From NCBI GenBank assembly GCA_009841255.1, contig VXMD01000024.1:1-64000 (forward strand): a stretch of DNA of 64,000 bases, given 5' to 3'. The DNA comes from Candidatus Poribacteria bacterium (GTDB lineage: Bacteria > Poribacteria > WGA-4E > WGA-3G). How positions within the stretch are numbered: position 1 is the stretch's first letter; each line of letters starts with the position of its first letter. Of this stretch, positions 18,424-23,725 are shown one piece after another. A model generated the notes under the pieces. The model did no database searches and had not been told where the DNA came from. It was given only the letters and a program-made list of their open reading frames with translations. The translations under genes and the position numbers were made by a program.

Positions 18424-18448
18424 TCTTGTATCAGTCAAGACTTATTTT
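18422..18448. terminator. Hairpin between convergent genes
   Basis: AGTCTTG (18422-18428) and CAAGACT (18436-18442) form a 7-bp stem followed on the plus strand by TATTTT. It contains part of both stop codons of the two convergent genes and probably ends the plus-strand transcript. Confidence 0.55.
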
Positions 18449-21400
18449 CGGAAAGCGACAGATTGATTTCTATACCTAAGAAGTCAGCGAGTTTTTCACA
18501 CTCCTCTCGGTAATAAGCAATTCTCGCTGAATCGTTTGCCTTGCTGGTCATCATTGTCGCCATAAATTCGCGCGGATAGTGTGCTTTCAGGTAGGCCATA
18601 CGATATGCCAACATCGAGTAAGCAACGGCATGCGCTTTGTTAAAGGCATAGCGTGCCGAAGGTTCAAGTAGCTTAAATACTTCTTCAGCCTCTTCTTTAG
18701 GCATACCTTTTTTTATTGCACCCTCAACAAATTTTTCACGCTGTGCTGTAAGCACTCGCTCGTTTTTTCCGTCCATTCCTCTGCCCATTGCGTGGCGGAA
18801 TACATCCGCTTCAGCGAGGGTAAAACCCCCCATATCGTGGGCAATCTGCATCACCTGCTCCTGATAGAGGCACACACCGTAAGTGCTTTTGAGTACCCTC
18901 TCAAGTGAGGGATGTATATATTCTACGGGCTGCAGTCCATTTTTCCGGTCCATGTACCGCTGCATATCCCCATTTTCTATAGGACCTGGTCGATAGAGTG
19001 CGATAATCGCGCAAAATTCCTCAAAATTGTCAGGTTTGAGCTCGGTGACAACCTGAAGCATGCCGGGAGAAGTTTCCAACTGAAATAAACCCGCGATGAG
19101 TCCGTTGCTAACCAGCGAATAGGTTTTCTTGTCGTCAAAAGGGATCTCTTCCAGTTTAATTTTCACCGCGTGGCTCGTCTCAATCATCTGAAGACAGTCG
19201 TACGTTTCAGTGAGACTCCGTAAACCGAGGGAATCAAATTTGACGATACCGACATCTTCAACCGTTTTCCCTTCAAACTGCGTCGCGACTTGGTCATGTC
19301 TATCCTTAAAGAGCGGGACGTAATTTGTCAACGGACCGTCTGAGACGACAATTGCAGAGGTATGCGTGGAAACATGTCGTTTCATACCTTCAACTGCTTT
19401 ACTCATCTCAATCAACTCTCGATTTTCAGGGAGTTCAGCGAGTGCCTGAAATTCAGGGACCCGTTCCAAGACTTCATCAAGCGTGATGTAGGACGTCCGC
19501 GGAATGAGTTCCGTCAACTTTTCAACAGTTTCGGAAGGTACATCAAGTGCGCGCCCGACATCCTTAATCGCGGCTTTCGCACCTAAGGTCGTAAAGATAG
19601 CGACTTTACTGACGGAATCCGCTCCGTATTTTTTCGCGAGATACGCAATTACATGTTCACGTGCGCGGTCGGCGAAATCTATATCAATATCTGGAGCAGT
19701 GAGACGTTCAAGGTTCAAAAATCGTTCAAATAGGCAGCCGTGATCCATCGGATTGAAACTAATCACACCGAGCGCGTATAGTGCCAGACTGCCAGCAGCA
19801 GAACCGCGGGCGGAAAGTGGATACCCCTGTTTGTGGGCGTAGTTGACATAATCTGCCACAATCAGAAAATAGTTAGCATGGCTCCCCTGTCTGATGATAT
19901 CCAGTTCGTAATCAACCCGCTGCCGGATGGGTTCGGAGAGTTCACCACATTTTTCACGTAAGCCGCGGTAGCACAGTTCCCTCAGATAACTATCGTGCGT
20001 ATGCCCTTCGGGGACCTCGTATTTGGGCATCGGATTCTGTTGATAGTCGAGTTCAAGGTTACACCGATTCGCAATTTCAAGGGTGTTGCTGATAGCCTCC
20101 GGCGGATAATCCTTCAGCGCCTCCCGCATCTCGTCAATGCTTTTGAAGTAGAAGTGGTTATCATAGCGGAGTCGCTCGCGGTCATTGACAGTTTTCTTCG
20201 TCTGGATACAGAGAAGAATGTCGTGCATCCCGTGATCCGATTTGCGAAGGTAGTGGCAATCGTTTGTGCCGACGATGGGAAGATTGAACTCACTTGCCAG
20301 TTGTACCATTACTGGATATGCCTCAAGCTCCTTGTCGATGTAGTGGTTTTGCAGCTCGACATAGAGATTACCTTTCCCCATTATCTCCATCAGGGTTTTG
20401 AAGGTTTGAATTGCCTCATCGCGCCGATTTGCGCAAAGGAGTTGTGGCACCTGTCCTTGGATACATCCGGTTAGTGCAATAATCCCGTCCCGGTGTTCAC
20501 GTAAGATTTCCATGTCGATGCGTGGTTTGTGATTAAAGCCCTCTGTGTATCCGAGAGATACCAATTCCAAAAGATTTTGGTAACCGGTTGCATCTTCTGC
20601 AAGCAGCGTGAGATGATAGGGACCTTCGCGTTCTTGTCCACGCGCCTTTCGACTCCCCCGTGCGACATACACCTCACAACCGATGATTGGGTTGATTCCT
20701 GCCTCTGTCGCCTTGTTGTATAACTCCCATGCGCCGAACATGTTGCCGTGATCGGTGAGTGCGACAGCTGGAACGCTATTTTCAACTGCCCAATCCACCA
20801 TATCTGGAATACGGCAGGCACCATCGAGCATGCTATACTCACTGTGGTTGTGCAAATGAACAAATTCAGATGTGGCTGTAGAAGAGACGCGAGTGTCGCC
20901 TCCAGGGGAGCTTCCACGCTGCTGGGTGGACGGTGCAACACTGGGTTCGTTTTGTGGCTCAATTCCCGTAGCAAGGATGGTAACATAAACCGTGCCTTTA
21001 GGTTCAGGATCGTCGTCTCTGTAGACGAGTCCAAAGATAATTTGAGCGTCGAACGCTTCGTCTTGGAGCACCCCCATCGCCGTATCCAATTCATTCATCA
21101 TAAAGTCCGGCGGGGCACTAATATTAACAATCAGCCCGGTCGCGTTCCCAACGCTTTTCCCGTCCAGCAACGGTGAGGTGATAGCGTTTTCCATAGCGAT
21201 TCTCGCCCGATTTGTGCCTTTGGCATGCCCTATGCCCATCAACACAGTGCCAGCATCCTTCATGATACTCTCTATATCGGTAAAATCAACGTTAATCTCG
21301 CCTGATTCCACGATAATATCGGCGACAGCTTTAATGCCGAGTAACATGGCCCCATCACTCATGTGGAACGCTTCACCTGTCGAGGGTTCTGTGTCTATAG

Positions 21401-22502
21401 TATCAAGAAGCCGTTGATTTGGTACTACGATAACGGCATCAGTATTGTCTCGGAGTTCATGGAGTCCCAGTCTCGCGTGTTCGGCGCGGCGTTGCCCCTC
21501 GGAATCAAGTGGAAGTGTCACAACACCTATCGTTAAAACGCCCTGCTCTCGGGCGATAGATGCGATTAAGGGAGCGGCACCTGTCCCCGTTCCACCCCCC
21601 ATGCCTGCTGTAATGAAGACCATACGAGCGTCCGCAACGATGGCATTGAGCGTTTCCAAATCTTCCTCAGCTGCCCTTCTGCCCACCTCCGGATTCCCAT
21701 TTGTGCTGATTCCTTGCGTGGTGTTAGCACCGATCTGCACCTGTGTTGCCCCATCGCACGTGCGGAGTGCTTCTAAATCCGTATTCACGGCGTAAAATCC
21801 AATGCTTTTCAAACCGGATGCAATCATCCGTTTGACAATGTTGCCACCTGCGTCGCCGATACCGAAAACCTTCGTTTTGTCCCGTGTCGGTTTGGATACC
21901 TCTTTTTCATGCGTCATAGTTCTTTCCCTTTTAATTTCTTCAACGCCAAATTCCTCACGCAGGAGTGTCCGAATTTGGCTGAGTCTCGTCTTGACGGTCC
22001 CAACCGCTAAACCAAGCTCGGTCGCAATTTCTTTGATCGTCCACATCTCTAAGTAATACAGCACTGCGACAGCCCGAACCCGCTCCGGTAGGTGATGTAC
22101 TGCTTCCGTTACAGCCGCACGAAGTTCCGTCTCTCGAAAACGGGCAATCACATCTCGGTCAATGGTTTCCGCGAGTTGCTCTGCACTTTGAAGGATTTCA
22201 CCTCTTGTATGCGAGTTAGCAGTGTAGTATCTTCTGCAAGTCGTGTACGCTATCTTCCTGAGCCAGGCACCAAAACTACTGACTTCGCGTAAGCCTCTAA
22301 TGTTTTCCCAGACGGCTACCCAAATGTCTTGAAAAATCTCTTCAGCATCGCGAATTTGACGGGAGTTCAAAACAACGAGTTGCCAAATTCTGGAACTATG
22401 ACGGGCTGCGAGTTGGGCAAATGCCGCCTCATCCCCGCCTTGCACGAGCCGAATGAGTCCTTCATCCGTTAGATCTGTGTAGGTTGATGAATCGTATCGC
22501 AT
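18435..22502 (-). CDS. Triple fusion: ECF sigma factor - FtsZ GTPase - DNA polymerase III alpha (DnaE) N-terminal part
   Basis: One uninterrupted 1355-residue frame. Residues 1-190: ECF sigma factor with region 2 (ARHSSRIWQLVVLNSRQIRDAEEIFQDIWVA... in part) and region 4 (LPERVRAVAVLYYLEMWTIK, GTVKTRL). Residues about 208-515: FtsZ with GIGDAGGNIV nucleotide loop, tubulin signature GGGTGTG (302-308), VIVVPN, and T7 residues NVDFTD (404-409). A 31-residue Ser/Pro/Gln linker replaces the FtsZ tail. Residues 547-1355: DnaE PHP domain with HLHNHSEYS (549-557), DH 584-585, E610, NDCH (747-750); palm with SARGSAAGS (898-906), PDIDIDF (937-943) and D1090; thumb and fingers. It stops after FLGIEINLSL, so the HhH, clamp-binding, OB and tau-binding domains are absent. 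All catalytic residues checked are intact. No anti-sigma gene is adjacent. Confidence 0.9.
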   Translation of the reverse strand: MRYDSSTYTDLTDEGLIRLVQGGDEAAFAQLAARHSSRIWQLVVLNSRQIRDAEEIFQDIWVAVWENIRGLREVSSFGAWLRKIAYTTCRRYYTANSHTRGEILQSAEQLAETIDRDVIARFRETELRAAVTEAVHHLPERVRAVAVLYYLEMWTIKEIATELGLAVGTVKTRLSQIRTLLREEFGVEEIKRERTMTHEKEVSKPTRDKTKVFGIGDAGGNIVKRMIASGLKSIGFYAVNTDLEALRTCDGATQVQIGANTTQGISTNGNPEVGRRAAEEDLETLNAIVADARMVFITAGMGGGTGTGAAPLIASIAREQGVLTIGVVTLPLDSEGQRRAEHARLGLHELRDNTDAVIVVPNQRLLDTIDTEPSTGEAFHMSDGAMLLGIKAVADIIVESGEINVDFTDIESIMKDAGTVLMGIGHAKGTNRARIAMENAITSPLLDGKSVGNATGLIVNISAPPDFMMNELDTAMGVLQDEAFDAQIIFGLVYRDDDPEPKGTVYVTILATGIEPQNEPSVAPSTQQRGSSPGGDTRVSSTATSEFVHLHNHSEYSMLDGACRIPDMVDWAVENSVPAVALTDHGNMFGAWELYNKATEAGINPIIGCEVYVARGSRKARGQEREGPYHLTLLAEDATGYQNLLELVSLGYTEGFNHKPRIDMEILREHRDGIIALTGCIQGQVPQLLCANRRDEAIQTFKTLMEIMGKGNLYVELQNHYIDKELEAYPVMVQLASEFNLPIVGTNDCHYLRKSDHGMHDILLCIQTKKTVNDRERLRYDNHFYFKSIDEMREALKDYPPEAISNTLEIANRCNLELDYQQNPMPKYEVPEGHTHDSYLRELCYRGLREKCGELSEPIRQRVDYELDIIRQGSHANYFLIVADYVNYAHKQGYPLSARGSAAGSLALYALGVISFNPMDHGCLFERFLNLERLTAPDIDIDFADRAREHVIAYLAKKYGADSVSKVAIFTTLGAKAAIKDVGRALDVPSETVEKLTELIPRTSYITLDEVLERVPEFQALAELPENRELIEMSKAVEGMKRHVSTHTSAIVVSDGPLTNYVPLFKDRHDQVATQFEGKTVEDVGIVKFDSLGLRSLTETYDCLQMIETSHAVKIKLEEIPFDDKKTYSLVSNGLIAGLFQLETSPGMLQVVTELKPDNFEEFCAIIALYRPGPIENGDMQRYMDRKNGLQPVEYIHPSLERVLKSTYGVCLYQEQVMQIAHDMGGFTLAEADVFRHAMGRGMDGKNERVLTAQREKFVEGAIKKGMPKEEAEEVFKLLEPSARYAFNKAHAVAYSMLAYRMAYLKAHYPREFMATMMTSKANDSARIAYYREECEKLADFLGIEINLSLSENKS
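21915..21930 (-). promoter_or_regulatory. Possible internal ribosome binding site and start of the FtsZ-DnaE part
   Basis: Inside the fusion, AAGGGAAAG (21930-21922) stands four bases before ATG codon 196 (21917-21915), just before the FtsZ domain (MTHEKEVSKPTRDKTKVFGIG). An FtsZ-DnaE protein without the sigma part could start here. No comparable ATG exists at the FtsZ-DnaE junction. Confidence 0.45.
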
Positions 22503-22609
22503 TGATAAATTTCCAATAAGATTTGGTTATAAAGAGGGGAATTTTTGGGGAAAAGGTTTAAATTTTTTTCTGTGAATAGGGGAGACCGTCTTTGTCGTAG
22601 GAAAATCTT

Positions 22610-23725
22610 TTATCGCCTCCGGGACGCCATATCGAATCCTACGGCTGCGACGAGCACAATTCCTTTGATTATGTCTTGCCATGAGGCATCCATATTCGCC
22701 ATGCTCATTCCGTTGTTGAGGCTTTCCATGACGAACGCGCCTAAAATTGCCCCGAATATGCTCCCACGTCCCCCCATTAAACTGGCACCGCCGATCACAC
22801 ACGCAGCAATGGCATCTAATTCCAACAGCCGCCCTGCCTCTGGACTGGCACTCCCGACCCGTGCTGTCATAACAACACCAGCGATCGCCATTAACGCACC
22901 CATTGTTGCAAACACACGCAGCGTAACCCCGCGAACGTTGATCCCGGAGAGGTACGCCGCTTCGGCGTTTCCACCGACTGCATACACATAACGTCCGAAA
23001 CGGGTATGGTTGGCGATAAAATGGAATACGAACGCCAATCCAAATAGAATGCAGACTGGAACGGGAATCCCCTTGTGAGCATTCATCACGGAGATGAAGG
23101 CTACAATGAGTGCGGATGCTCCGATGAACTTCAATAGGAAAGTTTGCAAGGATGTTTGCTCAGGACTGTATTGGCGCTGGGCGGTTCGCTGTCGATAAAA
23201 GCGATAGCCGTTGATGCCCAATCCAACACCCATGAGTGCCCATCCAAGCGTTGACGAGAGATAGGCGTTTCCGATCGCTTTGAGCCAATTGTCTGGAAGT
23301 AGGATGGTCTCGCCTTTGGTAAACGCTAACATCAAACCACGATACGCTAAAAATCCACCCAATGTGACGATAAACGCTGGGACTCGCTGATACGCCACGA
23401 GGTAACCCTGCATCAAGCCCATCAGCATCCCGATGCATAAGACAGCGATGAGTGTCACGAAGATCGATTGTCCCCACCAGACGTGTACAATCGCGGCAAT
23501 AGCACCGAGCAATCCTGCCCCGTAGCCGACAGAGAGATCGATATTCGCAGAAACGATGACCAAGGTCATGCCGACAGCGAGGATGGCTGTGACGGCGGCT
23601 TGACGAGAAAGGTTGGACAGGTTCCGAGTACTGAGGAAGGTGCCGCCGGTTAGGAGTGTGAAAATCACCCAAACACAGACGAGGGCAAGCACCATCGCAT
23701 ACATGCGAAGATTCAGGTGTTTCAT
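22610..23725 (-). CDS. Sugar ABC transporter permease, XylH/RbsC family
   Basis: A 371-residue inner-membrane permease of the ribose/xylose type with about ten hydrophobic segments. Typical blocks are NLSRQAAVTAILAVGMTLVI, IDLSVGYGAG, FIVTLGGFLAYRG, GRYVYAVGGNAEAAYLSGI and AACVIGGASLMGGRGS. A hydrophilic insertion (RFYRQRTAQRQYSPEQ) sits between central spans, as in XylH. Neither the ATPase nor the binding protein is next to it; the upstream gene is a lipoprotein and the downstream gene is the triple fusion, 107 bases away, an AT-rich gap with no clear promoter. Confidence 0.87.
   Translation of the reverse strand: MKHLNLRMYAMVLALVCVWVIFTLLTGGTFLSTRNLSNLSRQAAVTAILAVGMTLVIVSANIDLSVGYGAGLLGAIAAIVHVWWGQSIFVTLIAVLCIGMLMGLMQGYLVAYQRVPAFIVTLGGFLAYRGLMLAFTKGETILLPDNWLKAIGNAYLSSTLGWALMGVGLGINGYRFYRQRTAQRQYSPEQTSLQTFLLKFIGASALIVAFISVMNAHKGIPVPVCILFGLAFVFHFIANHTRFGRYVYAVGGNAEAAYLSGINVRGVTLRVFATMGALMAIAGVVMTARVGSASPEAGRLLELDAIAACVIGGASLMGGRGSIFGAILGAFVMESLNNGMSMANMDASWQDIIKGIVLVAAVGFDMASRRR

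What the first reader, a model, noticed from the sequence alone, without database searches (positions are those of the whole stretch)
18435..22502. ECF sigma factor, FtsZ and DnaE polymerase encoded as one 1355-residue protein
Three proteins of transcription, division and replication that are normally separate are joined in frame over 4.07 kb. Each part keeps its diagnostic and catalytic residues: sigma regions 2 and 4; FtsZ GGGTGTG and NVDFTD; PHP ligands and the DnaE aspartates of PDIDIDF. A short Ser/Pro/Gln linker replaces the FtsZ C-terminal tail that normally binds FtsA/ZipA-like partners. I know of no described protein with this architecture. A polymerase tethered to a GTP-dependent filament could couple DNA synthesis to division or to an envelope signal, or act as a defence or repair polymerase; these roles are speculation.
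Basis: partly seen in the sequence, partly recalled or inferred. Interest (0 to 1): 0.95.

Follow-up and report, generated by a model that had tools for sequence, protein, structure and literature searches.

The report
Sigma factor fused to FtsZ and DnaE
A group of uncultured bacteria (Poribacteria, mostly known from sponges) carries a conserved gene-switching protein physically joined to spare copies of its cell-division protein and its DNA-copying enzyme, and sister genes join the same kind of switch to other essential proteins, which suggests that these cells use copies of core machinery to control genes.

Summary
Window 18435-22502 (minus strand) is one open frame of 1355 aa: ECF sigma factor, FtsZ, then the PHP and polymerase core of DnaE, cut before the clamp-binding part. 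It is no assembly artefact. The same frame occurs unbroken in 29 of 85 poribacterial genomes, in two genera of one family, including single-contig chromosomes. All fused DnaE parts form one clade, so the fusion arose once, before the two genera split. Complete separate ftsZ and dnaE are also present. Every part is under purifying selection (dN/dS 0.09, 0.18, 0.09). Active-site residues are kept better than other conserved positions, with a few clear losses. A promoter-like element (TAAACC-N18-CTCTTTATA) is conserved upstream and also precedes the sister sigma genes whatever domain they carry, so the sigma part is probably live and autoregulated. A Shine-Dalgarno plus ATG is conserved at the sigma/FtsZ joint, so a second product (FtsZ-DnaE alone) is likely. 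Related sigma factors in the same family are fused to DnaN, PurC, FtsZ alone or WD40. Best reading: an ECF sigma factor whose C-terminal regulatory module was built from duplicated essential proteins. What it senses is not shown. No literature on it was found.

The parts
18435..22502 (-). ECF sigma - FtsZ - DnaE(core) fusion gene, 1355 aa
21939..22502 (-). ECF sigma factor part (res. 1-188; sigma regions 2 and 4)
   Evidence: dN/dS 0.094
21915..21938 (-). Joint 1 (res. 189 to Met196): Shine-Dalgarno-like AAGG plus in-frame ATG (21915-21917), possible internal start
20958..21878 (-). FtsZ part (res. 209-515): GTPase and C-terminal domains, no C-terminal peptide
20868..20957 (-). Joint 2 (res. 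516-545): Ser/Pro/Gln linker, no start signal, predicted disordered; true FtsZ-DnaE fusion
18489..20867 (-). DnaE part (res. 546-1338): PHP, palm, thumb, most of fingers; clamp-binding part absent
22528..22560 (-). Conserved promoter-like element TAAACC-N18-CTCTTTATA, 25 nt before the ATG
22610..23725 (-). Upstream neighbour: sugar-type ABC permease, same position in most genus-1 and some g20 loci

Best explanation
It is an autoregulated ECF sigma factor of a poribacterial subfamily whose C-terminal module is exchangeable. In this member the module is a duplicated FtsZ followed by the PHP/polymerase core of a duplicated DnaE. I think the module controls the sigma part: binding of GTP, dNTP/DNA or partner proteins (native FtsZ, replisome, or an inhibitor) changes its conformation or assembly and so frees or hides the sigma part, coupling transcription to the state of division and replication. 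An internal start at joint 1 probably also yields free FtsZ-DnaE, which could co-assemble with and titrate the full-length protein. Shown: architecture, conservation, single origin, purifying selection, a shared promoter-like element, a conserved internal start signal, exchange of modules. Inferred: sigma activity, autoregulation, regulation by the module, the signal, use of the internal start.
For: Same frame in 29 phylum genomes; fused DnaE parts form one clade across two genera (support 0.993). dN/dS: sigma 0.094, FtsZ 0.177, DnaE 0.090, linkers about 0.4. A promoter-like element is conserved in both genera; its only exact match in the own 5.73 Mb genome is upstream of the fusion, and it also precedes sister sigma-FtsZ, sigma-DnaN and sigma-WD40 genes of the subfamily. 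The same sigma subfamily carries FtsZ, short FtsZ, DnaN, PurC or WD40. Many other ECFs of these genomes carry large C-terminal extensions. Regulatory C-terminal extensions of ECFs are an established mode (PMC8999054). Active-site positions of DnaE are kept at 99.0% against 90.5% for other native-invariant positions (p=0.005). Shine-Dalgarno match of 4 nt or more at joint 1 in 25/26 against 10.9% of 909 other Met codons.
Against: No expression, binding or activity data. The structure model does not show the module packed on the sigma part (joints disordered, pTM 0.56); the FtsZ-DnaE model failed. Preferential retention of catalytic residues would also fit a working enzyme. The ligand or signal is unknown, and the sigma may act constitutively with the module serving another role.
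Confidence: 0.5

Rival explanations
1. Integrated decoy: copies of attacked essential proteins (FtsZ, DnaE, DnaN, PurC) serve as bait for phage proteins or natural-product inhibitors; binding switches the sigma part on and triggers a protective regulon.
For: Essential proteins were recruited repeatedly: DnaN at least twice, PurC several times by different ECF subfamilies. A near match to the promoter element precedes a MacB-like ABC permease in four genomes. The module drifts faster than the native proteins but mostly keeps its binding sites.
Against: No defence-family match. The MacB promoter could belong to another ECF. Other ECF extensions are WD40, redoxin, methyltransferase and so on, not only likely targets. 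No inhibitor is known for this host.
Confidence: 0.15
2. Working enzyme delivered by a stress sigma: sigma and FtsZ-DnaE are made from one autoregulated gene, and the FtsZ-DnaE product acts as a stress polymerase or phosphoesterase (PHP) tethered to division filaments.
For: PHP and polymerase residues are kept in nearly all members; PHP is the most constrained part in most close pairs (dN/dS about 0.03-0.08); internal start signal.
Against: Clamp- and tau-binding parts absent. One metal-binding aspartate of the palm (res. 940) is lost in two related genomes, yet the polymerase region stays constrained (dN/dS 0.16). One genome has lost two PHP histidines. DnaE was lost altogether in several lineages that keep sigma-FtsZ.
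Confidence: 0.2
3. Two stacked genes: the sigma and FtsZ-DnaE act as separate proteins made from overlapping starts, and the in-frame joint 1 is incidental.
For: Shine-Dalgarno plus ATG conserved at joint 1 and at DnaN and PurC joints.
Against: No stop codon between the parts in any of 26 fusions compared although the linker evolves fast; joint 2 has no start signal at all.
Confidence: 0.12
4. Decaying or artefactual fusion without function.
For: Two genomes have the frame split (G030, G015) and several lineages lost DnaE or FtsZ.
Against: 29 intact frames in two genera, single-contig assemblies, purifying selection in all parts, conserved promoter-like element.
Confidence: 0.03

Closest known systems
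[quoted passage not shown] PMC8999054)
   Same: Sigma regions 2 and 4 followed by a C-terminal domain; relatives in this subfamily carry WD40 as in ECF57
   Different: Known extensions are SnoaL, TPR, WD40, Cys-rich or anti-sigma-like; here they are whole or near-whole essential proteins (FtsZ, DnaE core; in relatives DnaN, PurC)
FtsZ
   Same: GTPase fold, T-loops and T7 aspartates kept; closest folds are FtsZ crystal structures
   Different: No C-terminal FtsA/ZipA-type peptide; sigma in front, DnaE behind; dN/dS about five times that of native ftsZ
DnaE (DNA polymerase III alpha)
   Same: PHP and palm metal ligands, fingers motifs; 78% identical to the DnaE of the same genome
   Different: Ends soon after E. 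coli residue 808: no HhH, clamp-binding, OB or tau-binding part
Second sigma-FtsZ gene of the same genome (C49:56088-57245, 418 aa)
   Same: Same sigma subfamily and FtsZ GTPase domain
   Different: Stops before the T7 loop and C-terminal domain; no DnaE

Membership tests
ECF sigma factor (sigma-70 family group 4) | Sigma regions 2 and 4 only, no region 1.1/3 | tested here: met
   PF04542, PF08281, TIGR02937 above cut-offs; no other sigma region matched
ECF sigma factor (sigma-70 family group 4) | Recognises a cognate, usually autoregulated promoter | tested here: inconclusive
   Conserved element upstream of subfamily members; no transcription data
ECF57 (WD40 extension) | WD40 C-terminal extension | tested here: not met
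   This protein has none; sister genes show WD40-like repeats in their sequence
FtsZ | Tubulin signature GGGTGTG and GTP-binding loops | tested here: met
   Met in all 21 genus-1 members compared; last Gly changed in 4 of 5 g20 members
FtsZ | C-terminal peptide for FtsA/ZipA-type partners | tested here: not met
   Present in native FtsZ, replaced by the linker here
FtsZ | GTP-dependent polymerisation | not testable with these tools
   Needs purified protein
DnaE replicase | Three palm aspartates and PHP ligands | tested here: met
   Kept in the window protein; exceptions L024, L025 (res. 940) and L022 (two PHP His)
DnaE replicase | Clamp-binding and C-terminal domains | tested here: not met
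   Match ends at profile position 813/1151
Known anti-phage defence systems | Match to a PADLOC family | tested here: not met
   No match

The most novel reading that the evidence does not exclude
Poribacteria have evolved a modular class of sigma factors that carry built-in copies of essential replication, division and purine-synthesis proteins (FtsZ, DnaE, DnaN, PurC) as sensors or decoys, so that attack on or stalling of the core machinery is read out directly as transcription by one polypeptide.
Probability: 0.3. Interest if true: 0.93.

Novelty: new variant of a known kind. Interest (0 to 1): 0.85.

Why it matters
If the module controls the sigma part, this is a direct molecular link between the division/replication machinery and transcription, made from copies of the machinery itself. 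The repeated recruitment of DnaN and PurC to ECF sigma factors in the same phylum gives natural replicates, so the idea that essential proteins can be reused as sensors or decoys becomes testable. It also widens the list of regulatory extensions of ECF sigma factors.

Tried and rejected
Assembly artefact: rejected. Gene conversion from native dnaE as the reason for kept catalytic residues: rejected for DnaE, since own-native and other-native identities are about equal with no converted windows; it probably does occur between fused and free PurC in this genome. Defence family: none. A plasmid-borne copy: none covering 80% of the joint-1 query. Structure prediction: residues 1-554 gave FtsZ and helical sigma domains with disordered joints; residues 196-1355 gave a low-confidence model, not used. 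Literature searches for Poribacteria with ECF terms gave nothing, and searches with FtsZ or sliding clamp gave no title or abstract on such a fusion.

Full report
OBSERVATION. The window's minus strand at 18435-22502 holds one open frame of 1355 aa with an ATG start. Profile searches place sigma regions 2 and 4 at residues 34-183, FtsZ at 196-527 (above the NCBIfam cut-off) and DnaE at 547-1338. The DnaE part stops at position 813 of an 1151-position profile and aligns to E. coli pol III alpha 5-808. PHP, palm, thumb and most of the fingers are present; the helix-hairpin-helix, clamp-binding and C-terminal parts are absent. The same genome has a complete dnaE (1190 aa, 78% identical) and a complete ftsZ (432 aa, 62%), plus a second sigma-FtsZ gene of 418 aa that ends before the T7 loop.

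IT IS REAL. A search of all 85 held genomes of the phylum gives 29 intact three-part frames: 21 in the window's genus and 8 in a second genus (g20) of the same family. Four more are partial or split (G030, G015, G029, G068). None is outside the family. Carriers include two single-contig genomes (G005, G010) and one of three contigs (G018). Named records are Candidatus Poribacteria. Fused DnaE parts of both genera form one clade (support 0.993) that branches among native DnaE of this family. So the fusion arose once, before the two genera split, and has been inherited since. In most genus-1 loci and some g20 loci the upstream neighbour is the same ABC permease. DnaE was lost secondarily in several lineages: L329, in a two-contig genome, keeps only '...EFVHLHNHSEYSLLV'. 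FtsZ was lost in L322, which is sigma-DnaE.

SELECTION. Median dN/dS among 21 genus-1 fusions is 0.094 (sigma), 0.177 (FtsZ) and 0.090 (DnaE), about 0.4 in both linkers, against 0.035 for native ftsZ and 0.051 for native dnaE. At 28 PHP and polymerase active-site positions that never vary in native DnaE, the fusions keep 99.0% of residues, against 90.5% at the other 352 native-invariant positions (Fisher p=0.005; the active-site list is mine, from knowledge of the family). Gene conversion does not explain this. There are clear exceptions. Two related genomes lack one metal-binding aspartate of the palm (PDIFIDF; the D401 equivalent by my knowledge of E. coli DnaE), yet their polymerase region is still constrained (dN/dS 0.16). 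One genome has lost two PHP histidines. Four of five g20 members compared changed the last glycine of the FtsZ GGGTGTG loop, while both T7-loop aspartates are kept in all 26. So the ligand sites are mostly kept, but catalysis cannot be indispensable in every lineage.

SIGNALS IN THE DNA. All 26 aligned upstream regions share an element close to TAAACC-N18-CTCTTTATA, usually about 25 nt before the ATG (window 22528-22560, minus strand). In the own genome the only exact match is this one. In other genomes exact matches precede sister genes of the same sigma subfamily whatever their C-terminal part: sigma-FtsZ short, sigma-WD40, sigma-FtsZ and sigma-DnaN. With one mismatch or none it also precedes a MacB-like ABC permease in four genomes and another ECF gene in two. 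That may be the regulon of this sigma or of a related one. This fits an autoregulated ECF factor, but promoter use is inferred. At joint 1 an in-frame ATG (Met196, invariant in an otherwise variable linker) is preceded by a Shine-Dalgarno match of 4 nt or more in 25 of 26 genes, against 10.9% of 909 other internal Met codons. DnaN and PurC joints carry the same kind of signal. Joint 2 has none. One gene therefore probably gives a full-length protein and a free FtsZ-DnaE.

THE WIDER PATTERN. The own genome has about 50 ECF matches and G005 has 94, most in frames of 400-1290 aa. Many are sigma plus a transmembrane-like segment and a propeller-like repeat domain; others carry redoxin, methyltransferase, M16-peptidase or HTH domains. 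Two ECF subfamilies carry essential enzymes: DnaN, complete with all three clamp domains, in two separate clades, and PurC in six scattered cases near free PurC of their own lineage. In this genome fused and free PurC are 99% identical in protein, with a nearly identical central stretch and diverged ends, which suggests gene conversion. In the sigma tree the DnaN- and PurC-bearing members of the window's subfamily nest inside the FtsZ(-DnaE) members, so modules have been exchanged. Among 27 genus-1 genomes compared, those with the subfamily's sigma-DnaN (G012, G022, G023, perhaps G025) lack the three-part fusion; shared ancestry may explain this.

MECHANISM. The best-supported reading is an ECF sigma factor whose C-terminal extension, made of duplicated FtsZ and DnaE, regulates it. 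Fused extensions are an established way to control ECF factors (PMC8999054), and the same sigma with other modules behind the same promoter element fits a common output with different inputs. The signal is not known; GTP or dNTP/DNA binding, contact with native FtsZ or the replisome, or inhibitor binding are all possible. Rivals are the decoy idea, a stress enzyme made from an autoregulated gene, and two proteins from stacked starts.

NOVELTY. I found no report in the held library. Most subscription journals are not held, so this is not proof. Domain by domain it belongs to known families; the combination and the repeated use of essential proteins as sigma extensions are new as far as I can tell. 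The search outside Poribacteria used short exact patterns, so distant relatives elsewhere are not excluded.

Noticed in passing
G000 C49:58300-62700 (L107); G005 L213, L217; L231-L256: ECF sigma factors fused to a complete DnaN sliding clamp, in most genus-1 genomes sampled, besides free DnaN copies; two independent recruitments by two sigma subfamilies.
   Followed up: partly
G000 C41:36500-43500 (L292, L115); L074; L296, L298, L300: ECF sigma factors fused to a complete PurC, sporadic and recurrent; here fused and free PurC share a nearly identical central tract (gene conversion likely). A sigma-HTH gene follows in tandem.
   Followed up: partly
L055 / L035 (G003 C103): In one genome the sigma-FtsZ-DnaE frame runs on to 1758 aa through a further domain of about 300 aa.
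   Followed up: no
L317, L318, L319, L320 (g20), L321 (g18): Additional free-standing DnaE paralogs besides the native dnaE in several genomes of the family.
   Followed up: no
L344, L345, L349, L336: MacB-like ABC permease preceded by a match or near match to the fusion's promoter element in four genomes; candidate regulon member.
   Followed up: partly
G005 (single-contig genome): 94 ECF sigma matches in one 6.66 Mb genome, most in large multi-domain frames.
   Followed up: partly
L340 (G010 C1:3746469): An exact match to the promoter element lies upstream of what looks like an IS200/IS605-type TnpB gene.
   Followed up: no
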